Positions 387-39,005 of a stretch of 64,000 nt of DNA are shown in pieces (within the stretch, counting starts at the first letter, position 1; each line of letters opens with the position of its first letter). Source of the stretch: Halichondria panicea (lineage: Eukaryota; Porifera; Demospongiae; Suberitida; Halichondriidae); contig NC_087382.1 in the NCBI RefSeq assembly GCF_963675165.1, positions 1,550,001 to 1,614,000 on the forward strand, in the 5' to 3' direction. The notes under the pieces are model-generated. The model made no database searches and was not told the origin of the DNA. It worked only from the letters and a program-made list of their open reading frames with translations. Made by a program: the position numbers and the translations under genes.

Positions 387-764
387 CGGTTGGGATGATG
401 CAAATCCGAGCACAAAGAGCAACCATGTGAGAGCATGCAGTGACTACAGCCAGGACCAATCCAATCTAACATGGTATATAGGTGCATGCTAACTTTGACG
501 TCAAAATGATCAGCATGCATGAAAGTATATTTTAGCTGTAATAATAATAATAATTATTATAGGAGCAATAGAATTCAATGTTGCATTCTATTGCTCCTAT
601 ACTATATCACTCCTGACTACAGTTAAAATCGCATCGAGGCATCATTACTGGTAAAACTGCTTTATACAAGCAGCTAACTTCAATGTCAGACATTTAATAG
701 CTATGCTAGTATAGAAGCAATAGAATGCAACAACATGCACCTTTCTTGCTAGTCCTTCCAACAT
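387..764 (-). pseudogene. Array family fragment (exons 1-2 only), frameshifted
   Basis: Exon 1 (741-764) encodes MLEGLARK followed by a GT donor. Exon 2 (387-465) encodes the first transmembrane segment of the four-TM array family. Compared with the equivalent exon at 27912-27986, exon 2 carries an extra four bases (ATGC/GCAT) in the run TGCATGC, which shifts the frame after about nine residues. Exons 3-5 are absent from the window on the downstream side, so this is a fragment or runs off the left edge. The surrounding 340-960 is nearly the same as 34.12-34.74 kb. Confidence 0.7.
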
Positions 765-859
765 CTTATTGCAGAGCGCAGTAGAAGCAACAGCAGAAGT
801 ATTCACTCAGTCAGTAGTGAACAGCATGTAAATTGTGAGACACTCTCCAAAAGGAATTG

Positions 860-868
860 TTTTTATAG
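860..868 (-). promoter_or_regulatory. TATA box of array fragment at 0.4-0.8 kb
   Basis: The minus strand reads CTATAAAAA here, about 96 bp upstream of the exon 1 ATG. The motif sits at the same place upstream of most array copies. Assignment as a TATA box is inference from motif and position. Confidence 0.55.
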
Positions 869-979
869 AGGCAACAGGCTTCATCTTCCACTAGCCTCGC
901 ACTTTCCCCATCTTCCTTTCTTCATTATATATAAGGAGGCTACATCTCCACCTCAGATGATTATTCTCAAGTTTCCCAT

Positions 980-1520
980 TAGCCTCGAGACCAGGCCGAT
1001 TAAAATACGCCTCGAGACCAGGCCGAGTCTCTATTGCATGGCCAGTATCTGGGTAACTCGTTATACTTTAGTAAATCTTTGTAAAATTATACCGTAAACT
1101 AGTTGTTTACTATTTTCTTTCCGTATCAAATATTTGTCTCCTGTGAAGCTGTGGCTTATGCTCTCTATTGCGTTGTCTAGAAGACTTGCTGGCTAGCTGT
1201 GGCCCTCTATGGTGTTGTCGAGAAGGCTTGCACACTAGTCTGAAGTCAGAAGAAGCTCTCATTTGTACAGAAACCAAGTTCAAAACATCACGACCATCCA
1301 ACCATCATAGAGGTAGATGAGAGCCTCTTTTTGTTTCAGACTAGTGTGCAAGCCTTCTCGACAATACCATTGAGTGCCACAGCTAGCTAGCTAGGCTATA
1401 AAGCTTCAAGTACATAGACTATGTCATAGTGGATAGTACGTGGGCGTGTATGGACCACGCCTATGATTAATTACACATGCATGCCAAGGCCGTATTTTAA
1501 TCGGCCTGGATTCGAGGCTA
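980..1520. mobile_element. TAGCCTCGA-family DNA transposon, 541 bp, perfect 9-bp TSD
   Basis: The element begins TAGCCTCGAGACCAGGCCGA and ends with the inverse, CGGCCTGGATTCGAGGCTA. It is flanked by perfect 9-bp direct repeats GTTTCCCAT (971-979 and 1521-1529). The interior has an imperfect inverted repeat around a 'gcaagccttctcgacaa' motif (about 1215 and 1348). No transposase frame is visible, so it is non-autonomous. A 9-bp target duplication is typical of Mutator-like elements (family knowledge). The paralogous locus at 34.7 kb lacks it. Confidence 0.75.
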
Positions 1521-1611
1521 GTTTCCCATAGGAACGCTGAAACAGTTTGTTTTAAATACGATCTTTACCTTATTGCGCGTTGTTGAACGCCATCCTACAT
1601 TGTAGCCTTTT

Positions 1612-1628
1612 GGGGGGGGGGGGGGGGG
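1612..1628. repeat. Poly-G run of 17
   Basis: An uninterrupted run of 17 G on the plus strand, followed by CCTCGAATCCCAG, a partial match to the TAGCCTCGA element ends. It may be a degraded element end. Confidence 0.7.
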
Positions 1629-1820
1629 CCTCGAATCCCAGAACTAGCTGCTCTCTCACAAGTATATCTTGGCCGCATATTCTGCAATAAAAAAGTACTA
1701 AGCCGATATAATTATATAATAATTATGTATAGGATTATAATTCTATAACACACATAATATTGTTGTTTTTATGTCATAGGATGAGTACGCAACTCCAATA
1801 GACTGTATCAAGAGTTCATT

Positions 1821-2405
1821 AGGAAGAGTACGCAACTCCACTTAAAACCATAGGGGGCGTTTCTCCAACCTGCGTCACAACCACATGTTGACAACATTGT
1901 TGTTGTATAAACTGTGAAATCAAATTTGCAATGAATAACATAGTGAAGATTGTGATAATTATCACTAATGTTATTCATTTACAACTGCCAGTAGGAAGGC
2001 AACGAATAACATAGTTACTCATTGCCTTTCCTGCTAGTTGCGGTTACAACAGCCAGTATCTGTGACGTAAGATTGGAGGAATGCTTTTTGTACAGTCTAT
2101 TGGAGTTGCGTACTCTTCCTAATGAACTCTTGACTATTACACAAAAAGCATTCCTCCAGTCTTACGTCACAGATACTAGCTGTTGTAACCACAACTAGCA
2201 GAAAGGCAATAGTAACTATATGCCTTTCCTATACTGTGGCAGTTACTGTGGCAGTTGTAAATGAATAACATTAGTGATAATTATCACAATCATCACTATG
2301 TTATTCATTGCATATTTGATTTCACAGTAAGTTTTATACAACAGCATGTGGTTGCGACGTAGGTTGGAAGAAACGCCCCCTATATTGGAGTTGTGTACTC
2401 TTCCT
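1821..2405. mobile_element. Long fold-back (inverted-repeat) element
   Basis: Two arms of about 260-290 bp are inverted copies of each other. The left begins AGGAAGAGTACGCAACTCCA, with GGGGGCGTTTCTCCAACCTG further in. The right end is its reverse complement, ending TTGTGTACTCTTCCT. The centre (about 2090-2135) also carries TGGAGTTGCGTACTCTTCCT, which repeats inversely at 1782-1830, so a second hairpin is nested across the left boundary. No coding potential. It looks like a fold-back or MITE-type DNA element. Confidence 0.75.
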
Positions 2406-2409
2406 CTTT

Positions 2410-2815
2410 TTTTTATTTAACCTGCATGGGAAAGGGTAGCACAATAGGCTGTTAGGCCTCTTAAGGGTGCTCCCCATAACACAAATAAAAACGCAAATAA
2501 AAATACTGTTTGAAATGCATGAGAGGTTAAAAGGTGAGATTGTAGGGCTACTTTAAAACTAGTGAGAGAACTACTACATACAACAGAGCTAGGCAGAGAG
2601 TTCCACAAAAAACAATTATTTACAAAAAAAGAATATCATTCTATAACAGTTAACTCCAGCATGTTTACAAAGTAATAAGGTATTTGTGTGATCTTATGGT
2701 GGATGTTGGGGGTATAAAAATGATTAAAGGACAGACAGTCTACAGGTTGTTAATTATCTTATAATTATATTTGACAGCTTGAAAGAGAAAGATAGTCTCT
2801 ACGCTGTTCAAGTGA
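2410..2815 (-). pseudogene. 3' end of a non-LTR retrotransposon (LINE) ORF2, degraded
   Basis: The minus strand encodes 'RRDYLSLSSCQ', then 'FFVNNCFLWNSLPSSV' and 'SLTSFKVAL', the pattern (RR..L.L...; FF..R...WNSLP..V; FK..L) typical of the extreme C-terminus of LINE reverse-transcriptase ORFs. Several stop codons interrupt it (for example between the two blocks). Upstream reverse-transcriptase motifs are not visible. It is a short 5'-truncated relic. Confidence 0.65.
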
Positions 2816-4549: not shown

Positions 4550-4761
4550 TACCGTATATAGAGGGTATATTTCGAGGGTGTAAATGTTCGTGGTTTTTGC
4601 GGATTATGCATGAATCGCGAACATTTATAACCGCGAATTTAATATTCCATGCATGCATGCTGCAAAAAAGGCGCTATTCCACGAAAATTAAATCCGCGAA
4701 AACCTTTCTAAAGGCACATCCACGAAAATGTATACCCTCGAAATATACCCGCTATACGGTA
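4550..4761. mobile_element. TACCG-terminal MITE, 212 bp
   Basis: Terminal inverted repeats: left TACCGTATATAGAGGGTATA, right reading inward TACCGTATAGCGGGTATATT. They continue as TTCGAGGGT/ACCCTCGAA. Internal sequence has further inverted pieces (TTCGTGGTTTTTGCGGATT versus AATCCGCGAAAACC). No coding. Related copies lie at 25399-25603 and 48355-48579. Confidence 0.75.
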
Positions 4762-5207
4762 GTCCATATAATTTATTATCATCATGCAGACTGCATGTAT
4801 AATAGTCTCTATAATAAATGCATGTATCGATAGAGAGATCGAGGGGTGTACATGCATGCATGCACACAAAAACAGTATAATTATGATAATGTGCATGCAT
4901 ACATGTAGTGTTTATTCATAACATGCATGCCATGCTATTATATCAAGTGAGTAATCAGATAAACAGTTACCACACATTGTGCGAGCTGTTTTTCTATTAT
5001 TGGTGCTGTTGCTGCTGCCGGCCAAACGTTGCATTATAATTATCATTGTTAAAAAAAATTATTATTGCATACAGTAAAAGTATAATTAGCTATAACTATA
5101 ACACAATTGTTGTATTCTATTATCAACAAACTAAAAGTCAATAACAATGTTTGTTAAGTTTAAACAATCATGCATGCATGCAGGTTCAAGTCACTTTTCT
5201 GACTTTG

Positions 5208-6307
5208 CTAGTATTTTTCGCTGTTGCTGTTGGCTTCAGGAACTTCATAAAACGTCCATGACATCATCATACTAGTCTGCATGTATAATAAAATGATTAT
5301 ATAATTATATATAATTATAGAGACTGAGGGGGAGTTATTGGTATAATTATACAGTGCATGGTTATACATGTAAACTATATCCCTCAGTGCATGCATGCAC
5401 ATAATAGCTAATTATATATCTGTGGTTACTATATATATACAGTTGGTTTGTAGATCCTATATATATATATTAGTCTGTCTAGGATAATTATGGCATTTCT
5501 GCATGGGTATACAACAACAAAAACTACACTGCACAGTCCACACTCACCCATGACAGTGTGGCTAGTAGTGCACCAGCAAACTGGAGGTTCAGAGAATGGC
5601 TCACAAAACCAGATCTGATGGAAAGTAATCCTATCCCATTGATGTATAAGATCATTCCCAGACAGAGAAGAAACAGGACGCTGAAAAATGTTGTCTGAAA
5701 TAAACTGTTAAGGACCACATGCATGCAGTGTATATTGAAGACTATATAATAGTGTATGCACATGCATGCAGGTCTATAATATAATATATTCGGGCAAAGT
5801 AACTATAATTATATAGGTCTTATAATTATAACGGATACAATGGTCCCGATAATCTTAGCCACAGATCCTGACATGCTGAGAGCATGAACAACTCCCAGCA
5901 CAATGGTTGGAATACCCAGCAGGGAGATAATAAAATGAGGGAAGAACACAGAGCCTTGTGCAGCAGGTATACCTGAGAAATTCTGCAACAGAAATAACCA
6001 TGCATGCATGCAGTTAATTTTAATATTAGTGCATGAGCCATGCCACAGTATATAGCTCAGCTGCGTCCTCATGCATGCATGCACTATAATCATAGATTCA
6101 GTGTAGCAAGCTATACATAATTATATATAATTCTTGTATATACCGGGGCAGCCAATCCAAATCCAATCACGAAGAGCAGCCATGGGAGAGCAGTGACTCC
6201 GGCCAGGACCAATCCAATCTAGAATGGCAAATTATTTATAGCATGGTAAAAGTTAAGGAGCAATAGAATGCAACAAATGATACCTTTCTTGCTAATCCTG
6301 CCAACAT
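5208..6307 (-). CDS. Four-TM membrane protein, array copy A (complete, 5 exons)
   Basis: Unrecognised family, described from sequence. Exons on the minus strand: 6284-6307 (MLAGLARK), 6144-6218, 5839-5982, 5548-5694, 5208-5276. All have GT donors and AG acceptors, and every intron is phase 0, giving 152 aa. Exon 2 is one hydrophobic segment (IGLVLAGVTALPWLLFVIGF). Exon 3 holds NFSGIPAA then a second segment around FFPHFIISLLGIPTIVLG. Exon 4 holds a third (FSVLFLLCLGMILY) and, after a polar loop, the start of a fourth (LQFAGALLATLSW). The last exon is MMMSWTFYEVPEA plus a polar tail. This suggests a small tetraspan protein in a cellular membrane; substrate and role are unknown. The start is the first ATG of the conserved exon 1. 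A TATA box lies 85 bp upstream. Exon 4 is identical at protein level to copy C at 23.6 kb. Confidence 0.72.
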
Positions 6308-6388
6308 TTTTATTGCAGAGCCCAGTAGAAAAGGTAGTAGGAAATATTCAGTCAGTAGTACATGTAGCAATCACAAATTAAATCCATG

Positions 6389-6397
6389 TTTTTATAG
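6389..6397 (-). promoter_or_regulatory. TATA box of array copy A
   Basis: The minus strand reads CTATAAAAA, 85 bp upstream of the exon 1 ATG at 6307. It is positionally conserved with other array copies. Confidence 0.6.
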
Positions 6398-7182: not shown

Positions 7183-7382
7183 NNNNNNNNNNNNNNNNNN
7201 NNNNNNNNNNNNNNNNNNNNNNNNNNNNNNNNNNNNNNNNNNNNNNNNNNNNNNNNNNNNNNNNNNNNNNNNNNNNNNNNNNNNNNNNNNNNNNNNNNNN
7301 NNNNNNNNNNNNNNNNNNNNNNNNNNNNNNNNNNNNNNNNNNNNNNNNNNNNNNNNNNNNNNNNNNNNNNNNNNNNNNNNNN
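7183..7382. other. Assembly gap (200 N)
   Basis: Two hundred N, probably a fixed-size scaffold gap. Open frames crossing it are artefacts. It lies at the edge of a tandem duplication, which may be why assembly failed. Confidence 0.97.
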
Positions 7383-8146
7383 TTGTCTTTATTTGCTCCA
7401 AGCTCATGTGATGTCTAACCTGCAACTACACCCAGTTGATCAGTCATAATGTGTCACAGGGGCGTGGCAATTTACACTACTACACAACAGAAACCAATAA
7501 AATCAGCTAAAATCACCATTTTTGACAAGAAGGGCCGCTCGAGCCAAGACAGAACTCTTTCAGCTACTGTGAGTTAGTACACACGAAAAGTATACTATTG
7601 GAGTACATGCTCTCCAAAAATCAGACCTTAACTAGCATGAACTCGAAAAATCAATGCCTAACACATTTGGCACTATAAATTTACAAAACTTTGTATATCT
7701 CAGAACTTACTAGTAGCCTGTGGTGATTTTGCTCCATTTTGCTGCTCTTTGCCCGTTTTTGCTGACGTAAGCAATGATATTCATTGATTTGTGACATCAC
7801 AAATCATCTTGTCTTTATTTGCTCCAAGCTCATGTGATGTCTAACCTGCAACTACACCCAGTTGTCAGTCATAATGTGTCACAGGGGCGTGGCAATTTAC
7901 ACTTCTACGCAACAGAAACCAATAAAATCAGCTAAAATCACCATTTTTGACAAGAAGGGCCGATCGAGCCAAGACAGAACTCTTTCAGCTACTGTGAGTT
8001 AGTACACACGAAAAGTATACTATTGGAGTACATGCTCTCCAAAAATCAGACCTTAACTAGCATGAACTCGAAAAATCAATGCCTAACACATTTGGCACTA
8101 TAAATTTACAAAACTTTGTATATCTCAGAACTTACTAGTAGCCTGC
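7383..8146. repeat. Tandem duplication, 426-bp unit
   Basis: The segment starting TTGTCTTTATTTGCTCCAAG at 7383 restarts at 7809 and is nearly identical through CTTACTAGTAGCCTG near 8146. One full unit (426 bp) and one partial unit are present, adjacent to the gap. No gene is seen. Confidence 0.85.
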
Positions 8147-11229: not shown

Positions 11230-11317
11230 CTAATCTACAGGACTGGTCACTGTTATTATATCTAGTATATACTGTTGATTGTTGATGATAGCTTCCTCTG
11301 GCATTTCATAGAAGGCC
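11230..11317 (-). pseudogene. Array family exon 5 fragment
   Basis: The minus strand encodes FYEMPEEAIINNQQY, clearly related to the last exon of copy B (TFYEEAIINN). It is cut off on its 5' side at 11318, immediately next to a TAGCCTCGA transposon end at 11319, so exons 1-4 and the acceptor of this unit are gone. Confidence 0.6.
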
Positions 11318-11318
11318 C

Positions 11319-13153: not shown

Positions 13154-14660
13154 TTAGTTATTGATGATAGCTTCCTCATAGAAGGTCCATGCCATCAACT
13201 GACCAGTCTGTATAATTATTATAATTATAAGAGAGAGAAAGAATAACATGTTTTCATGACTGTGCAGTACAAGTAATTATAGCCAAACTTTTGCCGTTGT
13301 ATTTTGTAGTTATCAGAGTTATATAATAGTGCCACAATTAAGCTGACAATGCATGCACTTACCCAGGACACAGTGGCAATTAGTGCTCCTGCAAACGCCA
13401 AGTTTACAGGATGATAGAAGGCATGACCATAGGTTGATTGGTAAATAATGAAGCTTCCTGCACCGAATAAGATCATCCCAAGACAGAGAAGGAATAAAAC
13501 ACTGAACACTGTCGTCTGAGGAGATGTTAAAGAACACATGCAGTCATAAGTATATACATGTATTAATCGCATGTTGTCCTATTATTCACTGTGATTCGTA
13601 CAGTGATTAATTGCGTATCAGTAATTGCATGTCGTCATTAACGACGTGCAATTACTGCCTTGACGACCGCACGCTCGAATAACGGCCACGGCTAATTTTT
13701 TTACTGAAACTGCAGCTAAAAATGTCCTTAAAACTGCGTCACAAACGATTAACAATCAATAGTATGGCTATTATACTCGTGCAATAAGGGATTAATAGCA
13801 CTGGCAAGGTTAATAGCACTCGGCTACGCCTCGTGCAATTAGTAGCCTTGCCATTGCTTGTTACTCGTGCTATTAATCCCATAATTATTGCACTCTTAGC
13901 TAATTATACACATAGACATTATCATGACTGTGTATGTGTGTTGACAAATCACAGTTTGTAATGGGCAGAAAATACATTTTAACAGTATTAAACTAATCAC
14001 TCTCCAACAAAATCAGTTGGAAGTTCCAATGCAGAGAAATTGATCGTCTCTCCAGTCAGTGAGGTCTCTATAGATAAAGCATTAATGAGGATATACAATG
14101 GTCCTGAGGATCCTAATTGCAGATTGTGCACTGATAACAGCATGAACAGCTCCCAGCACGATGATTGGAATACCCAGCAGAGAGATGAACCAATGGGGGA
14201 ACCACGCAGAACCCACTAGTGTATAACCGTCGCCCTGGAAACAGGGGAGTAGAGTGCATGCACACAGATTATGGTAACACCAACTGAGTTACACATGCAA
14301 TACGTTCCAGTACTCTTGCAGCACTAGGTCAATGCCGGCATTGAATACGCATGCATATAATTATAACTGATATAGCTGTGTGTGCACACAGTCACATGCA
14401 CGCATATGTATACTTACAACAGTGGTCCATCCAAATCCGATCACAATGAGCAGCCAGGGTAGAATAGTGAAGCCAGCCAAGCCCAATCCAATCTGCAAGG
14501 TCAGAGATACATTAATAATTATTTCAATTCACAAGACTCTTGTCAAGAGCTGCATAAAATCATAAAAATTAATAAAATGCAACAACACCTTTCTTGCTAG
14601 TCCTTCCAACCTTTTAATTACAGCTGTAGTAGAAAAGAAGAGGCAGCAGGAAATCTTCAT
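13154..14660 (-). CDS. Four-TM membrane protein, array copy B (divergent, 5 exons)
   Basis: Same architecture as copy A but the most divergent copy. Exons: first exon ending at 14589, then 14418-14492, 14097-14234, 13363-13515, 13154-13207. All splice sites are GT-AG and phase 0. The usual exon 1 ATG is AGG here (14610-14612), so MLEGLARK becomes RLEGLARK. The frame stays open upstream to an ATG at 14658-14660, adding MKISCCLFFSTTAVIK and giving about 163 aa. Hydrophobic segments are kept in exons 2, 3 and 4. The loop in exon 4 is longer (QSTYGHAFYHP) and the end is MAWTFYEEAIINN. A TATA-like GATAAAAACA lies only about 30 bp upstream of the new ATG, leaving almost no 5' UTR, so the true start is uncertain. 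Intron 3 contains a hairpin repeat. Confidence 0.62.
13776..13894. repeat. Hairpin (fold-back) repeat in intron of copy B
   Basis: GTGCAATAAGGGATTAATAG ... and its inverse GCTATTAATCCCATAATTAT bracket a smaller inverted pair (ATAGCACTGGCAAGG / CCTTGCCATTGC). About 119 bp. Similar in style to 33914-34031. Confidence 0.65.
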
Positions 14661-17755: not shown

Positions 17756-17900
17756 GGTAGAATAGTGAAACCAGCCAAGCCCAATCCAAGCTGCAAGGTG
17801 TCGGACGTAATTATTAGCAACATGCATGCAATAGATACGAGAGCTGTAAATAGTAGCAATGTAAACGAAACAACACTTTTCTCGCAGGTCCTTCCAACAT
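17756..17900 (-). pseudogene. Array family 5' fragment (exon 1 and half of exon 2)
   Basis: Exon 1 (17877-17900) encodes MLEGPARK with a GT donor. Exon 2 begins after CTTGCAG and reads LGLGLAGFTILP, closest to copy B, but the match ends at about 17756 where unrelated sequence starts. Exons 3-5 are missing. A TATA box remains at 17998-18006. Confidence 0.7.
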
Positions 17901-21537: not shown

Positions 21538-22968
21538 TTAGTTACTGGCCCCGGGCACGTCATGATAAAAGTTCCATGTCATCATCACACCAGTCTGCAG
21601 AGAGAGAGAGTGCACAATGAATAAGTTTTAATAGTGTGAACAGTTTGCATACATGGCACAATATTCTCCCCTCTGTTATAACCCTTTCCTTGCCATTCGT
21701 GAAATCTGGAACAGGAGCGTCTTTAGGTCGATCAATTAGTGTGGATCCGGCCTCACCACGCCTCCAAGTCATTCTATTAGTCTAGATCCGGCTAGCAATT
21801 CTAGCTGGGACTCCCAGTTCTAGCTCCTTTTGTTTAGCGTGTCAGAGACTGGGAGAAGATGATTGGCACTCCCTGGCTCCTTTGGATGTACAGCTGTCCA
21901 GATCCCTAGAACATACCCTCCATTCTGACGAGTTATCAGTGCATAGGGTGCTTACTAGATTCTTGCCAGCCAGTACAGTTCAAGCTACACACAGCACCGC
22001 TCAACTATTCTCTACCCCATTATCTAGCTAAATCTGGTCCAACTAGACAGCAGACACAGCTAGTTAATTCAGTAAAGCCAGGGGTAGCCCTACTTCTACG
22101 GTTGTTCAGTACCCACGGTAACAATTCCTCTGGGCTGGGCTAACTAGTTGAGCCACGCCTCCCAATTCTCAAGGCTAGGTACATGTCTCTGTCTAGCTGC
22201 TTCTTCAGCTTCTTGCTCAGTTTTGTGAAAGGCCAGCTACTCAGGGGGAAGAGTCCAGATGAAAGTCTGGCAGCCAGGTGACGTCCAAACGGTCAGTTAT
22301 TCTTTCCACCAACTTTTTAATCTAGTCTAGTCCTGCTTGCACTGCTACTACTACTGCTGCCTACTGCTGCTACTCTTCCTAGCTAGTCAAAGGTTTCTTT
22401 TTTTTTTTTTTTTTTTTTTATAACTACATATGCACAAAGAGACATCAAAGCTTACATCAAAGGACACAGATTTTTAGCCTACTTGACTGATAAGGCGGTT
22501 ACCTAGACTACAGTTTGTTTGTCAGGGAGGAGCTCACATACAACTTCATCTAATTCATCATAACGATTCCTTACCCATTGTTGTAATTTCTACAACAGAT
22601 TGCCAAGGAAAGAGTTATGAAACAACAAATTATGCTATGGAACACTTAATAGACATGCATGCATGTAGTAGTTTAAGAATGTGGCAAGTATTATTATGTT
22701 ATGACATATGATAATAAGTTCCAGGAGTGGATCCAGCAGGGGTCCAGGGGGACCCGGTCCTTCTCTCTTTCTAACATGCATGCATGGGTAGTTCATTGGC
22801 ATGTCCACGATGTGGCAATCAAACTAGGATGCATGGCTATATATAATTATATATATATAGGCATGCAGACTCCATACACACGTATATATATATACTGACT
22901 ATAGTTTGATACAAAATGCATGACTGCATGATGAGAGCCATGCAGACTCAGCACCAAAACCCTCAAGA

Positions 22969-23017
<49 letters not shown>

Positions 23018-24471
23018 CACCAGGGGCGTAGCCAGGATTTTGGAGAAAGAGGTGCTATCACAGATAAAAGAGGGCGCAAAGCGCCCCATTTTTAGCCGCG
23101 CAGCGCCGAAATTTGGTTGACCGGAAGCCACACCTCTTATTAATGATGTCATAATTAACTTATCTGCCAAGTTGGGCGTGGCTGAACGTTTATTAATTTG
23201 CATAGAGAAGCTGGCCATGATCACAAAAGAGAACTAGTTTATAGATTTAAGCCAGAATACCTCACAGTTTAGAGACTAAATCGTTTTCCTTGCTATACTA
23301 GCTAGCTAACAGCCTAACTGCAGCAAGATCTGGAAGAGAAAGGGTGCTCAGCTGGACAATCAGATACATTTCTGTATACTTGACTCAGACTGCATGGTTG
23401 GGGGTGCTCGAGCACCCCTAGCACCCCCCTGGCTACGCCCCTGTGCACACACACACAAACCGACATAATTATATCCATCAATCACTCTACCTCTGCATGC
23501 GCAAGTACAAGTACAAGGTATTTATGAACATATGCATGCACGTATATATATACACTCACCCATGACAGTGTGGCTAGTAGTGCACCAGCAAACTGGAGGT
23601 TCAGAGAATGGCTCACAAAACCAGATCTGATGGAAAGTAATCCTATCCCATTGATGTATAAGATCATTCCCAGACAGAGAAGAAACAGGACGCTGAAAAA
23701 TGTTGTCTGAAATAAACTGTTAAGGACCTCAGTGTAATATACAGATACATGGCATGCTGCATATATAGATATAGATTCAATACATGCATGGAAACAAACA
23801 AAGTATATATCTAGTTTATATATAGCCATGCATGCAGTATATAATTATATACAGTTATACGGTAGACAGAAAGTACACACATTGGTGACATGCACTGCAT
23901 GCTGTTCCACTTCACTTATAACATAGCACTATACATGCAAACTGCATCCTCTCATTCATTGTATCCCTCGAGCTCATGCATATTAATAGTTAAAAAAAAA
24001 GATGATACAATGGTCCCGATAATCTTGGCCGCAGATTCTGATACACCAAGAGCATGAAGCACTCCCAGCACAATGGTTGGAATACCCAGCAGGGAGATGA
24101 TAAAATGGGGGAAGAGCACAGAGCCAGCTGCAGCAGGTACTCCTGACAAATTCTGCAATAAAATGATTTGTGCCGTATATAGGGCTATAATTATAATGCC
24201 TAAATAGCTAAGTTATAATTGCTATCACATTATATTGGTAGGCCAAGTTTATTTTACCGGGGCGGACAATCCGAATCCAATCACAAAGAGCAGCCATGGG
24301 ACAGCAGTGACTACAGCCAGGACCAATCCAATCTATAGCATATAATACAATAATTATTGATTATAATAAAACATACATGCTTAGGCTAACTTCAATGTCA
24401 GACATTTAATACCTATTATGCTATATAGCAATAGAATGCAACAACACCTTTCTTGCTAGTCCTTCCAACAT
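21538..24471 (-). CDS. Four-TM membrane protein, array copy C (complete, long intron 4)
   Basis: Exons: 24448-24471 (MLEGLARK), 24258-24332, 24009-24152, 23560-23706, 21538-21594. All GT-AG and phase 0; 148 aa. Exon 3 begins NLSGVPAAAGSVLFPHF. Exon 4 is identical in protein sequence to copy A. The last exon, TGVMMTWNFYHDVPGASN, fits the family pattern but lies about 2 kb away. Intron 4 has been enlarged by a CA microsatellite, a T run and a CAGGGG element. If that distant exon is not used, the protein would read into intron 4 a short way. Predicted four transmembrane segments; function unknown. TATA box at 24593-24601. The upstream region to 25.4 kb is duplicated at 34.4-35.6 kb. Confidence 0.65.
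22398..22419. repeat. Poly-T run of 22
   Basis: A 22-base T run inside intron 4 of array copy C. Could be the poly-A tail of a minus-strand retroposed sequence, but no SINE or LINE body is recognisable next to it. Confidence 0.6.
22971..23014. repeat. (AC)n microsatellite
   Basis: About 22 AC units directly before a transposon. On the minus strand it produces an artefactual VCVCVC frame. Confidence 0.95.
23021..23443. mobile_element. CAGGGGCGTAGCC-terminal hAT-like MITE, 423 bp
   Basis: Terminal inverted repeats CAGGGGCGTAGCCAGG / CCTGGCTACGCCCCTG, flanked by the 5-bp direct repeat TGCAC (23016-23020 and 23444-23448). The interior has the GCGCAAAGCGCCCC / GCGCAGCGCCGAAA strings common to this element group. 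No transposase. CAGGG ends with a 5-8 bp duplication suggest a hAT-type element. Confidence 0.75.
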
Positions 24472-25827: not shown

Positions 25828-28066
25828 TCATGCATAGAACGTCCACATCATCATCACACTAGTCTGTATAGAGAGAGAGGGAGTACAATATAAACCTCTG
25901 ATTTAATGACTACGATTATATAGGTATAATAATTATACGTATCTTAATTTTTGGGGAAGTTAAAAACTGCAAGAGGCAATCATTTGCGACATGATTTCTA
26001 ATGATTTTCTAGACTATATACTTCTATATCCAATCAGATTGCAGGATTTATGGCTGACACGAACATGTATATATACTGTGCACTCACCCATGATATAGTG
26101 GATAGAAGTGCACCATAAAACTCGAGGTTCAGAGAAATAAAACCAGGGGAGGATCTCGAATTACTGCCACCAGTCTGAGAAAGCAATCTTGTTCCATTCA
26201 AGTATAAGATCATCCCCAGACAGAGAAGAAACAGAACGCTGAAAAATGTTGTCTGATATTAATTGTTAAGGACCTCAGTGTAATACAGCATTATATAAAG
26301 ACCATGCATGCTTGCATGCATGAGTCTATATGACTGACTCGAGAAGAAAAAGAATCTAATGTACATGGCATTGCATATATATAGTTCTAAATTAATGATG
26401 CTGAATAGTATACGTGTATATATGGTGGATAGAAACTGCTATACACACTTTCCACTGCCAGTATATATACACTAGCATTCTGACTGCATGTATAATAGCA
26501 TTATAATTATATAATACATGCATGAGTATTTCCTTATTGAGCTCATATAATTTGTGATACAATGGTCCCGACAATCTTAGTTGCAGATCGTGACGTAAAT
26601 CTGTCAAGAGCATGAACCACTCCCAGCACAATGGTTGGAACACCGAGTAGAGAGATTGTAAAATGGGGGAAGAACACAGAGCCTACTGCAGCTGATACTC
26701 CAGAGAAATCCTGCAATGAGTAGAATCATAGCAGACTGTATATAGTATAGCGAGCCATGAATAATTATATATAGCCCGTTTGACACGAGGTCTTTTATCT
26801 GGATTTAAACTTCTGCGTTTGTGCATGTATATAAATGGGCCTATAATCCAGTGTCTAATAATTATAGTCCACCTATAATTATATATACCTCTGAAGGTGG
26901 TTTAGCTGTGCATGCATGAACATAGATTATTACTGTGACTCAGTCTATATGCTGTAAGTACAAAGGGCTTCTGAGGTGTAGTACATAATTGTGAGCTGTA
27001 TAGATACAGCTTCCTATCAGCCAATGTTTGCACAAATTCAATTAGTGGTGTTTTACTATGCCTTTGTATTTTGGCATGCAGAGGAGGTACGACATGCATG
27101 CAGGCAGGGTGCACAGCTCAAGCAATTAGCCCTTTGATTGGAGCATAATTATCTGCCCCCGCCCCGTCCACGTTGTATGTTTTTGCTGAGAGTATAATTA
27201 GAGGCTATAATTACTTGAGCTGCACTGCACCTGTCGTACCTCCTCTGCTATACAGTGGATTGCAGTGCAGACATTTGCCTGAGTGACAGCAAAACCACAA
27301 TTATACAGATATCATTATCAATTGAAACTATAATTCAAGCCTATAATTATATATAAGAGGTTGCACATTTATTATAGGGCCAAACTGAAAGATTTAGCGT
27401 ACATATAGTTGAATAATTTCGGCCACTTCTACAAAGATATTTATCTAAAAAGGGCAACTAAGCCACCACCCAACCACTAAGCCACACCTATTCTGTAATG
27501 CTGTATAAGTATACAAAGGGCTAATTCTGAGGTGTATATAGTATACATAATTGCATGCGGGCTGCATATGTATCAAAATATTCGTGGTTCAGCAATAATA
27601 TTGAGACCTTTTGTGGGTAATATTTTCGTAGTTGCAGCTTGCACTGCAGGTAAAGGTAGGCAAGGTCTCTTCATTTGTGGGTAAAATATTCGTGGTTAGA
27701 CCTTCAACCACAAAAACCACGAATATTTTGCCCCACGAAGATTACATTCTAGCCGGTAGCTTCCTATCAGCCAATGTTTACACTAGTGGTGTTTACTATA
27801 CGTACATGCATACACGCATGTATACTCAGACAAATGATTAATAGCTGAGCTATAATTGTATTTACAGAATTAATCCGATAAGCTATAATTATATCAATGC
27901 ACAAGTTTTACCGGTTGGGACGATGCAAATCCGATCACAAAGAGCAACCATGTGAGAGCAGTGACTACAGCCAGGACCAATCCAATCTAACATAGGTATA
28001 GGGGCATGCATGATGTCACTGTATAGGAGCAACAACACGTACCTTTCTTGTAAGTCCATCCAACAT
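25828..28066 (-). CDS. Four-TM membrane protein, array copy D (last exon truncated by 4-bp insertion)
   Basis: Exons: 28043-28066 (MLDGLTRK), 27912-27986, 26561-26710, 26088-26252, 25828-25863. All GT-AG, phase 0. Exon 2 ends FASSQP instead of the FGLAAP of copy A. Exon 3 (DFSGVSAAVGSVFFPHF) and exon 4 (longer loop QTGGSNSRSSPGF) are open. In the last exon the expected FYEVPEAGS is interrupted by an extra GCAT, giving FYA and a stop. The four hydrophobic segments are untouched, so a protein of about 161 aa lacking the polar tail could still be made, or the alternative exon at 25332-25388 could be used. The TATA region is weaker (CATAAAATAAATG, about 28170). Confidence 0.55.
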
Positions 28067-32000: not shown

Positions 32001-33027
32001 CGATCCCAGGCCGAGGCTAGGTTGAATCTTGACCTAGGAATCGAGACATGCTTTTACGGTGGAATGAACTCGCAAGCAAAAGTAACTCTTCTAATCATTT
32101 TGAGCAAGTACTTTGACTCACTTGCAAAGCTCTTCTTGAAATATCCTGACGGTTCAACCAAGACTGTTTGGTTGTTTGATGGTAACGTGCAATACTTCAC
32201 TCCTAATCACATCCCTCAGTTTGTTGCTGCTATCATAATTCTCATTGCTGGTGGATTGTTCACTGTACTGCTCTTCTTTGGACAATGGTTTCGAACATGT
32301 TCCAAGGTTATGACATGGACCAATAACACAAAGTACAATGGCTTCATGGATGTATACCATGCTCCATTCACTCCCAAGCATCGCTACTGGGTGGGACTGC
32401 TCCTGTTTGCTCTCATTGCTCATAATCTAGTAGCTGCCATGGCTCCAGACACATCTCTCCCTGAGTTGCAGTTGGACTGATATCATTGAACAACCGAGTG
32501 TACAAAAAGCAACTCAATGAATATCTAGATTATACTTAATGTCAGCATTCTATCCATCGGAACTTCCTATGTTGCTGAAACACACCGACAACAAGAAACA
32601 CTGACTATTGTTTCAATGTCTATAGCTTTCATTCTCTTTGTGACAATCATCAGCTACCATTTCCACCGCTTCATACTAAAGAACACCAAAATATGGCTCA
32701 AGATAAAACAAGTCACAAATAACTTGTTCACTGGTGTTGCAGACAAAAAGAACGGACACCCTAACAACGCCATGCATGGTAATTCATCAGCTGGCAGCCA
32801 ATGATGATGAAGATGATCAACTTAAAGCTGAACAAGTAAACATTGTGGACCCACCACAGGATCAGCTGAGAGAGCCTGCCCTGGACGTACTAGCCCCCCT
32901 CATCACAGAGGACTACAGAAGACCAGCCCCTCCCCCTCAAAGAGTTACCGTCGTCCTGTTACGCACACAGAAATTGGCCCCATACGCAATGAAGTGTAAA
33001 CCGTGTCTTATTTACATAGCTGCATGA
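29023..33027 (+). pseudogene. Beta-helix / Cys-rich / multi-TM surface protein (polymorphic membrane protein-like), disrupted
   Basis: From ATG 29023 the frame gives a signal peptide-like MQICCLEIFSAAWLVLLTL but hits TAG at 29080. Coding then continues in pieces: DYQNGTCFTLEQLV..., repeated beta-helix units of about 75 bp (SVSISNSELTNNSADYGGAI type, about 29.7-30.4 kb), ATSGGGIFLRES, a Cys-rich juxtamembrane region (ILCGECEPGLSLVLATSNCK), several TM segments (LLLLIPFALAGILLVALILV; AAIIILIAGGLFTVLLFF; IAFILFVTIIS) and an acidic/proline-rich tail. I know this layout from a family greatly expanded in demosponges and annotated as PmpB-like. At least eight frameshifts or stops (near 29345, 29658, 30079, 30400, 30720, 31344, 31956, 32480, 32800) and a 25-bp transposon insertion at 31995 make it a pseudogene or a very poor assembly. 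Confidence 0.7.
31995..32019. mobile_element. Minimal TAGCCTCGA palindrome inside the 29-33 kb gene
   Basis: 25 bp, TAGCCTCGATCCC..GAGGCTA, with perfect 9-bp direct repeats GGTTGAATC at 31986-31994 and 32020-32028. Removing element and one repeat restores the local reading WLNLDLGIETCFYGG, so this is a clean insertion into coding sequence. Confidence 0.85.
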
Positions 33028-33380: not shown

Positions 33381-33444
33381 TGCACTGAATCTTATATTCT
33401 GCACTGAATCTCATATTCTGCACTGAATCTCATATTCTGCACTG
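33381..33444. repeat. 19-bp tandem repeat, about 3.4 units
   Basis: Unit TGCACTGAATCTCATATTC repeated three times plus a partial TGCACTG. The first unit has one change. Confidence 0.9.
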
Positions 33445-33913: not shown

Positions 33914-34031
33914 GTTATAACACATGCACTCGGGATGCATCATGGTGTATATTGCACTCAGCCCTTGGGGCTGGCGCCCTCGTGCTTCAGTGAAATATAC
34001 ACCATACAATCCCTTGTGCCCATGTTATAAC
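33914..34031. mobile_element. Hairpin MITE, 118 bp
   Basis: GTTATAACACATGCACTCGG at the left and its inverse (CCCTTGTGCCCATGTTATAAC) at the right, with inner arms ATGGTGTATATT / AATATACACCAT. A GGCTGGCGCCCTCGTGC-like loop resembles the other hairpin at 13.8 kb. Confidence 0.7.
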
Positions 34032-34167
34032 TATTACATATTCCTACTATGATAATACATAGCTATACATGTACTCAGAAAAATTATAATAGGTGAGCTA
34101 TTATGTGTATACATGCAGAATTAATCCATTTTTTGATAAGCTAGACAAATGAATGCACAAGTTTTAT

Positions 34168-34532
34168 CGGTTGGGATGATGCAAATCCGATCACGAAGAG
34201 CAACCATGTGAGAGCAGTGACTACAGCCAGGACCAATCCAATCTAACATGGTATATAGGTGCATGCTAACTTTGACGTCAAAATGATCAGCATGCATGAA
34301 AGTATATTTTAGCTGTAATAATTTTATTATACGTAGGAGTAATAGAATTCAATGTTGCATTCCTATACTATATCACTCCTTACTACAGCTAAAATCGCAC
34401 CGAGGCATAATTACTGGTAAACTGCTTTATACAAGCAGCTAACTTCAATGTCAGACATTTAATAGCTATGCTGGTACAGAAGCAATAGAATGCAACAACA
34501 TGCATGCACCTTTCTTGCAGTCCTTCCAACAT
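34168..34532 (-). pseudogene. Array family fragment with frameshift and lost splice donor
   Basis: Exon 1 (34510-34532) is one base short (MLEGLQER instead of MLEGLARK). Exon 2 (34168-34242) is open (IGLVLAVVTALTWLLFVIGF) but its donor reads AT instead of GT after CCG. No exons 3-5 follow. TATA box at 34625-34632 (TTCTATAAAAC). Two independent lesions make it a pseudogene. The surrounding DNA is the duplicate of 0.34-0.96 kb, and 34.43-35.6 kb duplicates 24.4-25.4 kb. Confidence 0.75.
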
Positions 34533-35537
34533 CTTATTGCAGAGCGCAGTAGAAGCAGCAGAAGTATTCACTCAGTCAGTAGTGAACAGCATGTGAATTG
34601 TGAGACACTCTCCAAAAGGAATTGTTTTATAGAAGCAACAGGCTTCATCTCCACTAGCCTCGCACTTTTTCCTCTTCCTTTCTTCATTTATAGAGGCCTG
34701 TGAAGGAGACTACATCTCCACCTCACCCAGATAGGAACGCTGAAACAGTTTGTTCTTAAGACGACCTTTCCCTAATTCAATACAGCAAGACAACTGAAAG
34801 AGTTTGTTTTAAAGACAATCTTTACCTAATTCAATACAGCAAGCCACTGAAAGAGTTTGTTTGAAAGACGATCTTTACCTAATTGCGCGTTGTTGAACAC
34901 AAGGATTGGAAAATGATATAGTAATACCCCAGAGACAGAACTCGCTACCCTCCCACAAGTATTCTTGGCACATAATGTTAACCTTACGCTTTTTGTGAAA
35001 TGAATGACCTCAACTAATATCATACAGTACAGTATAAAACTATTGTAAACCCTAGAGGATTGTTCGCAAAAATAAGATCGCAAAAAACTATGACCTCAAT
35101 TATGATCACAATCCTTGTCAAGTATCAAATTTTCTGCATGTTTTGACTATATGCATGATTAGACGGGTTACACAGCATACAGTGTGCACATTTTGTATAC
35201 AATAATTATAGTGGTATAATTATATAGGGCATGGTGTGATGATGAGAGACAGATAGTGGCAAGGCAGCCTCCTATCAGTGCATGCATCATCCGCGTGTCA
35301 TCCGCGTGTCTTTAACACACACATTCCGAACTTTGACCTAAGGAATGTGTGTCCTCTGGGGTAATATACTGTATTATGCCTACTATAATGGTGTGGCATG
35401 TACTGGGTGTGAGAATGTTATGCATATGTCTGCATGGGGTTTAAAAGGAAACACGCCCTCAATATAATTATGTACAATTGAATTTTAAGAGAAATAGTAT
35501 AGAAGTGGCCTTTGTTGTTTTCTGCCAAGCATGTAAT

Positions 35538-35846
35538 TTAGGTGCTGGCTTCGAGCACTTCATGCATAGAAGTCCGTATCATCATCACACTAGTCTGTAC
35601 ATAATTAGAGAGAGAGAGAGGGAGTACAATATAAACCTCTGACTTAAGAGCAACCATGTGAGCTAGCTAGAGCAGTGACTCCAGTCAGGACAAATCCAAT
35701 CTATAATCCAATCGTGACATCAAAGTTAGCATGGAGATGCACGCTAACTTTGATGTCACAGTCACATGCATGGATCCGAAGTAGATTTGAGTATAGTACA
35801 TAAGCAGCAATAGAATGCAACGCCTTTCTTTATTTTCTGTCCAATA
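35538..35846 (-). pseudogene. Degraded array unit (exon 5, exon 2 and exon 1 relics)
   Basis: 35538-35594 is an exon 5 homologue whose GCAT insertion is offset by an upstream 1-bp loss, so the frame stays open (TSVMMIRTSMHEVLEAST). About 35646-35704 is an exon 2 relic with an 8-bp CTAGCTAG insertion. About 35823-35846 is an exon 1 relic with ATA in place of ATG and GC at the donor. Exons 3 and 4 are absent. Confidence 0.6.
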
Positions 35847-36042
35847 TTTTATTCATGGCAGAGTAGTTAGTATAAAAATTATATAGACAAGTTTGCAGCC
35901 TATAATTAATTATTGTGTGAAACACTCTCCAAAACTATTAATTTTTATTTATCCTCTGATGTCATATAACAATGATAAGATTTAAGTAATAGCTCTCTAC
36001 AAAAGTGTACTGCCCTTATAATCGCTCTTGATCTAACCATCT

Positions 36043-36127
36043 CTATGACATCACATCATGGTCAGGCAGTGGGAGATCATATAGATTCTATGATCTCCCA
36101 CTGCCAGACCATGATGTGATGTCATAG
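36043..36127. repeat. Near-perfect hairpin, arms about 40 bp
   Basis: CTATGACATCACATCATGGTC ... GGCAGTGGGAGATCATA faces TATGATCTCCCACTGCC ... GACCATGATGTGATGTCATAG. A looser version is at 28.29-28.35 kb in the duplicated block. Confidence 0.8.
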
Positions 36128-36290
36128 CCCACCACAATCTCGCAATCACTATAATAGTCCCCACACAATTTTTGACCTATGATCAGTATTGTAACTGACA
36201 GTGTCACTCACTGTGACATTATAATTATGGCTACATATGACTCATGCATTGGTATACCCATGCACATGCACAACGTACCACAAACTGGAT

Positions 36291-36412
36291 CATCGTGACT
36301 CATGCATCGTGACATGTCAGCATCAAACTGCATCATCGTGACTCATGCATGTGACATGTCAGCATCTAACTGCATCATCGTGACTCATGCATCGTGACAT
36401 GTCAGCATCAAT
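36291..36412. repeat. Three tandem copies of a 40-43 bp unit
   Basis: Unit CATCGTGACTCATGCATCGT followed by GACATGTCAGCATC(A/T)AACTG, three copies with small changes. Confidence 0.8.
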
Positions 36413-36816
36413 ATTAAATTAGTGTGGTTGCACATGATCAAAGCAGCATTACACTAAGAATGAATGGTTTATCACATTATTATTAGATAACATAATTCTC
36501 TAACTTGTGCATGCATGGGAGGACAGCTAATCCAGGTCAGTAAAATGTTATAATTATGATCTCACAGCTTCATGCTTTTACTCCCAACAGGATGTTTAAG
36601 CTCCCAACAGGATGGCCATGTACAAGTACAACTAATCTTCTGGGAACCACGTCTACCACAATAGGTCATGCCATTATGTGGTTGATGGTGCCAAACTTCC
36701 CTGGCTAGGTGCGTGGTATATGTATATGTTGCTAACACAAGTGCATGCTCGATTGACTAGCAAAAGTATAGTGAAACAGAAAAGAGTGCAGCATCCATTA
36801 AACAGTGAGTTTAAAG

Positions 36817-37915
36817 CAGGGGCGGATCCAGGGGTGGTTTTGAAGGGCTGAAGCCTGAAGCCCCCCCTTTTGAAAACTACCTATGTATTGCTAGTCTAGG
36901 CCGGAATTCCGACCTGACCAATCAGATCAAGGATTGAAGGAAAAAAGAATGACAAGAAGCGTATGCGTTCTCTATACAGTAGGACGTATTTATAGCTAGC
37001 GCTATAGTCAGTGGCTATATACTGTTATAGCCAGTCAAGGATCTATAGTTAGTTGAGCTGACTGCAACTAGTGCTGTGCAACCTTAGCAACGTTCTTGGA
37101 GCAAGCCAAACAAAAATTCATAGCTGCTAGTCAAGCATTCGCGGTTGACCTTTTGCATGCAATTGGTTTTGACACTGACGTAATGACAATTAACATTCCA
37201 TTGTGGAATGACTAAAGTGCTCAGACTGACTCTCCAAGGCAGGCTGATTCATGAGACTATAGCACTCTATAATTATGATGCCCATGTTTGTAGTAAAATA
37301 TAAGGAACCATGGATAACTTAACATATTATAGAGATCATATAAAATGTGTTACTGATGGTTGCACCCGCTTCAGTTTCAACAATAAACTCTCACTGTCAA
37401 AGTCAATATTACAGAGCAAGTAAACACTTTTACCTCGTGCAATCGTATGATTGGAACTTAATTGCATGATGTCCATGCATGCATGCATATAATTATAGCA
37501 GCGCACCATTATTATACTCACCCTAGCTCTATAACTATATCACTATATACTTCTGGGAGTATACTTTAAATTAACTCAGTCAGACAACCCTGCATGCCAT
37601 GCATCTATACTTATACCATGCACTTATGATGTGCATGCTCATATGCTAGCCTCGATCCCAGGCCGAGTTTTCGCTTTTATAACGTGTACGATTATAAAAG
37701 CGAACAACTACTGGGATCGAGGCTAATGCTCATGCATATAATTATGGCAGAGAAAGTTGAGTTTTGAATAAGGTTCATTGCATGTCAGTAAACATTATAT
37801 GACACAATTAATTGTTGTATTCTATTATTACAGTTCACTAACTATAAAAGTCAATAAACACAATCAGGTACACTCACAAGTCACTTTTCTGACTTTGTTT
37901 TTTTATACTGCATGG
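36817..37915. other. CAGGGGCGGATCC element end plus intergenic
   Basis: At 36817 the duplicated array flank stops and CAGGGGCGGATCCAGGGGTG begins, the same end as the hAT-like element at 59.5 kb. The opposite end was not found, so the element is truncated or diverged. A TAGCCTCGA palindrome lies at 37646-37725. No gene. Confidence 0.55.
37646..37725. mobile_element. TAGCCTCGA-family palindrome, 80 bp
   Basis: TAGCCTCGATCCCAGGCCGA ... TACTGGGATCGAGGCTA, with inner arms GTTTTCGCTTTTATAA / TTATAAAAGCGAAC. The left flank ATGCTCATATGC and right flank ATGCTCATGC suggest a target duplication altered by an extra ATGC on the left. Confidence 0.75.
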
Positions 37916-39005
37916 TTAATTGCTGCTGCTGCCGGCTTCAGGAACTTCATAGAATGTCCATAACATCATCTGACTAGTCTGTGTATATATATAATTATAG
38001 AGGGGGGAGTACAAAATAAACAGGTGTGCAGTGATGACATGTATCCCTCTGGCTCTCAGTGCATGTATCTGCTAATCAGCATGCATGGATAATTACGGTT
38101 AAATTAATAGTCAAATTGTGTGGCACATATATACAGTATATTATAGTGCACACATTTTTGTTCATTAATGTTAGTAAAAACACTTCTATATGCATGCATG
38201 CATAATTATTATACTGCATGCACGTATACATGTACTCACCCATGACAGTGTGCCTAGTAGCGCACCAGCAAACTGGAGGTTCAGAGGATGGCTCACTAAA
38301 CCAGAACCAGAACTGGAGACTAATGCAATTCCATTGATGTATAAGATCATTCCCAGACAGAGAAGAAACAGAACACTGAAAAATGTTGTCTGAAATAAAC
38401 TGTTAAGGACCACAGTGTATATTGAAGACTATATATAATTATTTATGCATGCATGGGTCTATAATATATATTCGGGCAAAGTAACTAATATTATAGGTCT
38501 TATAATTATAACGGATACAATGGTCCCGATAATCTTAGCCACAGATCCTGATACACCAAGAGCATGAACCACTCCCAGCCCAATGGTTGGAATGCCCAGC
38601 AGGGAGATGATAAAATGGGGGAAGAACACAGAGCCTTGTGCAGCAGGTATACCTGAGAAATTCTGCAACAGAAATAACCATGCATGTATGCATTAACTTT
38701 AATATTAGTACATGAGCCATGCCACAGTATATAGCTCAGCTGCGTCCTATTACATTGCATGCACGATAATTATAGATACAGTGTAGCAAGCTATATACAT
38801 TGTATATACCGGGGCGGCCAATCCAAATCCAATCACGAAGAGCAGCCATGGGAGAGCAGTGACTCCGGCCAGAACCACTCCAATCTAGCATGGCAAATTA
38901 TTTATAGCATGATATATAAAAATTAGAACTTAAGAAGCTATGATATATAGCTGAGGAGCAATAGAATGCAACAAATGATACCTTTCTTGCTAATCCTGCC
39001 AACAT
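37916..39005 (-). CDS. Four-TM membrane protein, array copy E (complete, 5 exons)
   Basis: Exons: 38982-39005 (MLAGLARK), 38810-38884, 38519-38662, 38240-38389, 37916-37978. GT-AG, all phase 0; 151 aa including TSQMMLWTFYEVPEAGSSSN. Closest to copy A; exon 3 differs by few residues and exon 4 has one extra residue in the loop (VSSSGSGLVSHP). Predicted topology: short N-terminus, four TM segments with the largest loop between TM3 and TM4, and a short polar tail. TATA box about 101 bp upstream. It is the 5'-most gene of the array in transcription order and directly follows, tail to head, the attractin-like gene. Confidence 0.72.

What the first reader, a model, noticed from the sequence alone, without database searches (positions are those of the whole stretch)
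387..39005. Tandem array of an undescribed five-exon, four-TM gene family
At least eleven units or fragments share the same exon structure: 8-codon first exon (ML.GLARK), 25-codon TM exon, 46-50-codon exon, 49-55-codon exon, 18-23-codon last exon, all phase 0. Four are complete by eye, one has a damaged tail. The hydrophobic cores and exon lengths are kept while loops vary (SIRSG, SSSGSG, QTGGSNSRSS, QSTYGHAFY), a pattern expected under constraint with diversification of the TM3-TM4 loop. I recognise no known family. It could be a sponge-specific multigene membrane system.
Basis: partly seen in the sequence, partly recalled or inferred. Interest (0 to 1): 0.75.

Follow-up and report, generated by a model that had tools for sequence, protein, structure and literature searches.

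The report
Tandem array of undescribed membrane genes
A eukaryotic chromosome carries sixteen copies, fourteen of them in a row, of a small gene for a probable four-helix membrane protein that matches no family in the protein libraries searched; half of the copies look usable, the membrane-spanning parts are conserved, and one outer loop is variable and partly exchanged between neighbours.

Summary
The window's minus strand has eight units with the MLxGLARK exon, plus relics. In this genome I find 16 (a lower bound), all on contig C6 minus: 14 in a 91-kb array, one each at 1.30 and 2.69 Mb. Eight are complete five-exon, phase-0 ORFs (in this window 6, 24, 38 kb); the 14-kb copy lacks the usual ATG, the 28-kb copy has a short tail, six are broken. 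In nine modelled copies 36 of 36 introns are GT-AG; 13 of 16 upstream regions have a TATA-like box. Pooled membrane segments are constrained (dN/dS 0.34-0.41); outer loops (0.69-1.5) and the inner loop (0.9-2.0) are not clearly so. One close pair differs at 20% of loop-2 coding sites but 3% of intron sites. The 6-kb copy has the 24-kb copy's exon 4 unchanged, which suggests gene conversion. No credible Pfam, NCBIfam, PHROG or PDB sequence match. New: two intronless, probably 8-TM genes on C9 are remote relatives (hhalign 52.5 and 60.4; shuffles at most 19.6). Best reading: a functional birth-and-death family of small tetraspan proteins with variable loops. Role, expression and taxon were not tested.

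The parts
37916..39005 (-). unit 38 kb, complete: e1 38982-39005, e2 38810-38884, e3 38519-38662, e4 38240-38389, e5 37916-37978; 151 aa
35533..35700 (-). relic: exon 2 pieces (35646-35700) and exon 5 piece (35533-35594)
34168..34532 (-). unit 34 kb, broken: exon 1 with a 1-nt loss, exon 2 with donor AT in place of GT; no exons 3-5 found
25828..28066 (-). unit 28 kb: e1 28043-28066, e2 27912-27986, e3 26561-26710, e4 26088-26252, e5 25828-25863 with early stop (shortened C-terminus)
21538..24471 (-). unit 24 kb, complete: e1 24448-24471, e2 24258-24332, e3 24009-24152, e4 23560-23706, e5 21538-21594 after a 1,965-nt intron
17756..17900 (-). unit 18 kb, broken: exon 1 (17877-17900) and a truncated exon 2
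13154..14612 (-). unit 14 kb: e1 14589-14612 (AGG where other copies have ATG), e2 14418-14492, e3 14097-14234, e4 13363-13515, e5 13154-13207
11270..11315 (-). orphan exon 5 relic of the B type
5208..6307 (-). unit 6 kb, complete: e1 6284-6307, e2 6144-6218, e3 5839-5982, e4 5548-5694, e5 5208-5276; exon 4 identical to that of the 24-kb unit
387..764 (-). unit 0.4 kb, broken: exon 1 741-764, exon 2 387-465 with a 4-nt insertion; no exons 3-5 found

Best explanation
It is a functional, tandemly duplicating family of genes for small (144-161 aa in full copies) four-helix membrane proteins, remotely related to two intronless, probably 8-TM genes elsewhere in the same genome. A unit has five phase-0 exons and, in most units (13 of 16), a TATA-like box about 100 nt before the start. 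Shown here: exon models, canonical splice sites, constraint on the membrane segments as a whole, birth-and-death of copies, one exon-4 exchange tract, and remote homology to the C9 proteins. Inferred: N-terminus and C-terminus inside the cell (positive-inside rule), loops 1 and 2 outside. Inferred and less certain: the helices form a fixed scaffold, perhaps paired or oligomeric, and the two short outer loops give each copy its own partner or ligand, so that the cluster works as a repertoire of surface recognition or adhesion proteins. Loop variety arises through duplication, small in-frame changes and conversion between neighbours.
For: 16 units with exon 1, all on C6 minus strand (genome searches). 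Eight full ORFs: W6, W24, W38, U1517, U1531, U1537, U1540, U2687. GT-AG in 36 of 36 introns of nine modelled copies. TATA-like YATAAAA at -88 to -129 in 13 of 16 upstream regions, 0.076 expected per 170 nt. Pooled membrane-segment dN/dS 0.35 within subfamily A, 0.41 within B, 0.34 between, nine copies. Neutral simulations reach the observed pN/pS or less in 0-18 of 1000 runs for W38-W6, W38-W28, W38-U1517 and W38-U1537 and in 30 for U1517-U1531 over the whole protein, and in 0-39 of 1000 over the membrane segments for 7 of 8 pairs. Loop-2 coding DNA of W38 against U1540: 9 of 45 sites differ, against 25 of 757 intron and UTR sites (Fisher p 4.5e-5). W6 against W24: 28 of 243 differ in exons 1-3, 0 of 147 in exon 4 (p 1.7e-6). 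K/R counts fit an N-in topology. C9 relatives: hhalign 52.5 and 60.4, against at most 19.6 and 19.0 in 100 shuffles each.
Against: Half of the 16 units are altered: six broken, two doubtful. Some pairs fit neutrality over the whole protein: W38-U1540 pN/pS 1.18 (720 of 1000 simulations at or below), U1537-W14 (167 of 1000), U1531-U1537 (155 of 1000); W38-U1540 also over membrane segments (731 of 1000). Single segments are less constrained: TM2 0.76 within B and 0.74 between groups, TM4 0.65 within A and 0.74 within B. The inner loop has dN/dS 0.91 within A, 1.96 within B and 1.25 between, so variability is not confined to the outer side. TM4 is weakly hydrophobic in three copies. Pooled values use overlapping pairs. 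Eight of the 19 matches of the short exon-1 pattern lie on other contigs, with 3 in its reversed control; they were not followed up. No transcript or protein data were available, and nothing tested bears directly on recognition or adhesion.
Confidence: 0.6

Rival explanations
1. The genes are real and the membrane scaffold is constrained, but the loop variety has no function: short Ser/Gly-coding repeats in loop 2 slip, loops drift under weak constraint, and conversion moves loop variants about by chance. (This rival shares the gene part of the best explanation; the two confidences overlap.)
For: Synonymous sites are also raised in loop 2 (pS 0.394 against 0.163 in membrane segments within subfamily A), and the inner loop is as unconstrained as the outer ones. 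The loop difference between W38 and U1540 includes a 15-nt in-frame indel next to repeated GTTCTG-like words. The closest B pair, U1537 and W14, has the same loop 2.
Against: Loops 1+2 reach dN/dS 1.52 within B, though I did not test whether this exceeds 1; in the W38-U1540 pair the loop differs six times more than introns, which relaxed constraint alone does not give.
Confidence: 0.45
2. The array belongs to an already described 4-TM superfamily (for example MARVEL-like, claudin-like or CD20-like proteins) but is too divergent for sequence profiles.
For: Size, four helices and inferred N-in/C-in topology are those of several known tetraspan families (recalled); sequence profiles miss remote relatives.
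Against: Best Pfam-A match of eight members E 0.031 (DUF6044); none of the named families is listed at max E 10, where HMMER's filters drop most matches above about 0.1. No PDB sequence match with the profile. The loops of the nine copies contain no cysteine, which the tetraspanin, claudin and connexin/innexin definitions need.
Confidence: 0.2
3. A family of dead or dying repeats: duplicates of one old gene that persist without function.
For: Six of 16 units are broken and two doubtful; three of eight pairs fit neutral expectation over the whole protein.
Against: Eight full ORFs, all 36 splice pairs intact in nine copies, TATA-like element in 13 of 16, membrane segments constrained in 7 of 8 pairs. 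Neutral change of the observed size put a stop in 83-98% of simulated copies for the five most divergent pairs, but the copies compared were chosen as intact or nearly so, so this last point is partly circular.
Confidence: 0.07
4. The units are copies of a transposable element.
For: Repeated units with conserved flanks; transposon-like sequence lies in the window.
Against: In three genome searches all array-type matches are on one contig and one strand, and each full unit has canonical introns. Terminal repeats and target-site duplications were not looked for.
Confidence: 0.01

Closest known systems
Two intronless genes on contig C9 of the same genome (L009:444-1382 +, 313 aa between stops; L010 minus strand, 327 aa from its Met)
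   Same: Profile similarity over the whole 4-helix unit, from GLARK to the FY after helix 4.
   Different: 8 and 9 hydrophobic peaks, apparently two 4-helix halves; single exon; only two found. No credible Pfam match either (best E 0.022 and 0.058, below cut-off). The internal repeat itself is weakly supported: hhalign 22.7 (N against C halves) and 25.0 (array plus C halves against N halves, best of 100 shuffles 21.1).
Claudin / PMP22 and tetraspanin families (recalled definitions)
   Same: Four helices, inferred N-in/C-in, two outer loops.
   Different: No loop cysteines; not among the Pfam matches.
MARVEL-type small tetraspan proteins (recalled)
   Same: About 150 aa, short loops, four helices.
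   Different: Not among the Pfam matches of 8 members at max E 10.
Sea urchin 185/333 genes (PMC1988830: only the listing and start of abstract were seen; recombination and immune role recalled in part)
   Same: Diversification of an invertebrate gene family; tandem arrangement and sequence exchange are recalled.
   Different: Unrelated proteins; here membrane-embedded, far fewer copies, no evidence of an immune role.

Membership tests
Tetraspanin | CCG motif and paired cysteines in a large second outer loop (recalled) | tested here: not met
   The only cysteine in each of nine copies lies in helix 3; loop 2 is short, about 15-25 aa
Tetraspanin | Pfam profile match | tested here: not met
   Not among the matches of 8 members at max E 10; filters drop most matches above about 0.1
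Claudin/PMP22 | W-GLW-C-C motif in the first outer loop (recalled) | tested here: not met
   No cysteine in loop 1 of nine copies; not among the Pfam matches
Connexin / innexin | Two or three conserved cysteines in each outer loop (recalled) | tested here: not met
   No loop cysteines in nine copies; not among the Pfam matches
MARVEL and CD20-like | Pfam profile match | tested here: not met
   Not among the matches of 8 members at max E 10; filters drop most matches above about 0.1
MARVEL, CD20-like or any known tetraspan fold | Same three-dimensional fold | not tested
Family shared with the C9 8-TM genes | Profile similarity across the 4-helix unit above composition-matched controls | tested here: met
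   hhalign 52.5 (C-terminal halves) and 60.4 (all halves), reversed 15.9 and 13.5, best of 100 shuffles 19.6 and 19.0; N-terminal halves alone only 25.9, probability 16%
Tandemly duplicated protein-coding family | Same-strand copies sharing upstream, exon and intron structure | tested here: met
Sponge-specific family | Present in sponges and absent elsewhere | not testable with these tools
   No eukaryotic collection beyond this genome; the prokaryotic search (C9 alignment only) and viral searches (both alignments) confirmed no relative

The most novel reading that the evidence does not exclude
A self/non-self, symbiont or partner recognition repertoire of an early-branching animal built from tiny tetraspan proteins: a fixed four-helix scaffold presents a short hypervariable outer loop encoded on a single phase-0 exon, and neighbouring genes exchange that exon by gene conversion.
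Probability: 0.12. Interest if true: 0.8.

Novelty: new variant of a known kind. Interest (0 to 1): 0.45.

Why it matters
Tandem families of surface proteins with variable outer parts are how several invertebrates build recognition repertoires, but the known ones use Ig, SRCR, lectin-like or large repeat ectodomains (recalled). A family whose only sizeable variable ectodomain is a loop of some 15-25 residues on a four-helix scaffold, with a visible exon exchange, would be a compact and testable new design. Even if it is no repertoire, the array and the C9 genes together define a membrane-protein family without a credible match in Pfam-A (array and C9 genes) or in NCBIfam and PHROGs (array only), with a possible 4-TM to 8-TM (or reverse) step.

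Tried and rejected
Pfam-A with single copies and with eight aligned copies: best E 0.031 (DUF6044, 3 of 8 members); C9 proteins best E 0.022 and 0.058; all below curated cut-offs. NCBIfam best E 0.097, PHROGs best E 0.17, eight array members each; the C9 proteins were not run there. PDB sequences: array E 4, C9 (L010 protein) E 0.85, both profiles none. Prokaryotic genomes with the C9 alignment (36 candidate stretches) and viral contigs with both alignments (203 and 61 candidates): none confirmed, so a bacterial or viral origin has no support. Transposon explanation disfavoured (see rivals). Papers: six searches listed no title or abstract start describing such a family; one paper (PMC5450542, Amphimedon grafting transcriptome) was searched for four terms, with no occurrence; no other paper was opened. 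The species was not identified: none of the 11 sponge genome notes listed gives 131 Mb in the abstract start shown, and helped no further.

Structure prediction was not used: its rule covers proteins that contiguous DNA gives letter for letter, which a five-exon product is not, and the C9 loci were not fetched by the tools it names.

Counts to handle with care: pooled dN/dS uses all pairs within and between groups of nine copies, so pairs overlap; counts for four chosen pairs are. Left out before dN/dS: the six broken units; U2687 was added only (whole-protein dN/dS 0.56-0.75 against four copies). W14 and W28 were kept although one lacks the usual ATG and one has a short tail. The A4 alignment used for searches holds eight copies, without W14 and U2687. 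Searches of G000 score only the best candidates, so 16 units is a lower bound.
Full report
What is there. The window is C6:1,550,001-1,614,000 of a 131-Mb assembly in 39 contigs. The exon-1 pattern occurs seven times in the window with up to one mismatch, against 0.08 expected. Placing reference exons on every unit, and blastn with nine copies' exons, gives eight units with exon 1 and two clear relics. Three units are complete in the window (6, 24, 38 kb). The 14-kb unit is complete except that its first codon is AGG where the other exons 1 have ATG; an in-frame ATG lies further upstream. The 28-kb unit has an early stop just after helix 4. The 0.4-, 18- and 34-kb units are broken.

Extent. 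Whole-genome searches with an exon-3 query (13 of 13 matches on C6), a subfamily A query (42 of 44 on C6, two on C9) and a subfamily B query (42 of 42 on C6) give only minus-strand matches on C6. Only the best candidates are scored, so counts are lower bounds. Sixteen units have exon 1: 14 between 1,498 and 1,589 kb, one at 1,298 kb, one at 2,688 kb. The 17-base exon-1 pattern also occurs 8 times on other contigs, 11 times on C6, and 3 times as reversed control; the eight were not followed up. Eight units are full ORFs with canonical introns (W6, W24, W38, U1517, U1531, U1537, U1540, U2687), two are doubtful (W14, W28) and six are broken (U1298, U1498, U1523, W0.4, W18, W34). Subfamily B (IGLGLAGFTILPWLLIVIGFGW type) separates from A (IGLVLAxVTALPWLLFVIGFG type) on a FastTree of ten copies with support 1.0.

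Are they genes? In the nine modelled copies 36 of 36 introns are GT-AG. Thirteen of 16 upstream stretches have YATAAAA 88-129 nt before the start, expected 0.076 per 170 nt; two more (W14, U1537) have GATAAAA in the same place, and U2687 has none. Pooled membrane segments show dN/dS 0.35 (within A), 0.41 (within B) and 0.34 (between); loops 1+2 show 0.85, 1.52 and 0.69; the inner loop 0.91, 1.96 and 1.25; TM2 0.20, 0.76 and 0.74; TM4 0.65, 0.74 and 0.24. Against neutral simulations (1000 each, eight pairs, whole protein) the observed pN/pS or less arose in 9 (W38-W6), 18 (W38-W28), 30 (U1517-U1531), 155 (U1531-U1537), 0 (W38-U1517), 1 (W38-U1537), 720 (W38-U1540) and 167 (U1537-W14); for membrane segments alone in 0, 5, 8, 34, 0, 1, 731 and 39. 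So constraint on the membrane core is shown for most pairs, and not for W38-U1540, which has only six differences there.

Loops and exchange. W38 and U1540 are close duplicates: 25 of 757 intron and UTR sites and 11 of 411 other exon sites differ, but 9 of 45 aligned sites of loop-2 coding DNA differ, plus a 15-nt in-frame gap. W6 resembles W38 in exons 1-3 (13 of 243 differ), yet its exon 4 is identical to that of W24 over 147 nt, although exons 1-3 of W6 and W24 differ at 28 of 243 (p 1.7e-6). Identity of W6 and W24 breaks down a few bases into intron 4 and some 25 bases before exon 4, where however W38 is also nearly identical, so the upstream limit of the tract is not sharp; intron 4 of W6 resembles neither W24 nor W38. 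This is what gene conversion of the loop-2 exon would leave. However, synonymous sites in loop 2 are raised too, so positive selection is not shown.

Topology. Positive charges are 2-3 in the N-terminus, 0-1 in loop 1 and 1-3 in the middle loop, which suggests N-terminus inside, loops 1 and 2 outside. Helix 4 is weak by hydropathy in W38, W6 and W28. Four of the five A copies have a glycosylation sequon in loop 1 (NFS or NLS); W28 has one at the start of loop 2, and the four B copies examined have none.

Relatives. Two intronless ORFs on C9 appeared as weak matches (E 0.003 and 0.005). They are 36-38% identical to each other and searches with each found only the two. The array profile aligns with their C-terminal halves over 130 columns (hhalign 52.5) and with all four halves together (60.4); reversed controls give 15.9 and 13.5, and the best of 100 hydropathy-class-preserving shuffles 19.6 and 19.0. 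Against the N-terminal halves alone the score is 25.9, probability 16%, and the N-to-C internal repeat is weak (22.7; 25.0 for array plus C halves against N halves, best of 100 shuffles 21.1). One protein shows eight hydrophobic segments, the other nine peaks. So an 8-TM relative made of two 4-TM halves is likely but not proven; direction of change is open.

Known families. No library search gave a credible family, and no prokaryotic or viral relative was confirmed. The cysteine-based definitions of tetraspanins, claudins and connexins/innexins (recalled) are not met. Six paper searches did not list a description of it. The collection of papers is partial, and no eukaryotic proteome could be searched, so "undescribed" holds for these sources only.

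Mechanism. Most likely each intact copy makes a small surface tetraspan protein. The scaffold is conserved and the outer loops vary, so I place specificity in the loops: a modest repertoire for partner or ligand recognition or adhesion. That last step is inference, with roughly one chance in four, and the inner loop varies as well, which it does not explain; that the family is functional coding sequence I hold at about 0.9. The neutral-loop alternative is at present at least as likely as the repertoire reading and is listed first among the rivals.

Noticed in passing
G000:C9:2,277,455-2,278,381 (+) and C9:2,199,671-2,200,651 (-): Two intronless genes for probable 8-TM proteins, 36-38% identical to each other, without credible Pfam or PDB match, remotely related to the array.
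   Followed up: yes
window 29337-32480, + strand: ORFs on the opposite strand inside the array: right-handed beta-helix (PF13229 E 2.6e-7; polymorphic membrane protein-like repeat below cut-off), then a DUF7630-like stretch (E 2.8e-4, below cut-off) and a hydrophobic ORF without match. One gene is my inference.
   Followed up: partly
window 45896-47365, - strand: Long cysteine-rich ORF with a Teneurin-like EGF match just below the curated cut-off; further ORFs at 49.6-51.0 kb, untested.
   Followed up: no
window 62092-62739 and 63642-63986, - strand: PHD-finger ORF (E 3.8e-8) and a Tf2-1-like SH3 stretch (E 1.3e-5, below cut-off), which look transposon-derived.
   Followed up: no
window 1760-2410: Long inverted repeat (fold-back or MITE-like element), seen by eye; not tested.
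   Followed up: no
window 22960-23460, within intron 4 of the 24-kb unit: Repeat-like insert (GGGGCGTAGCCAGGGGGGTGC...) and a long GT microsatellite lie in the 2-kb intron; seen by eye.
   Followed up: no
window 63052-63582: In-frame minisatellite coding SHKPDVPS-like repeats, open in several frames.
   Followed up: no
window 7183-7382: Run of 200 N (gap or withheld stretch), followed by a 281-nt direct repeat pair at 7440-7720 and 7865-8145, 99% identical.
   Followed up: no
L001 rc 2160-2390, L003 rc 1540-1570, L005 near its low end: Long CT/CTCC tracts before exon 5 in several units, a possible source of instability.
   Followed up: no
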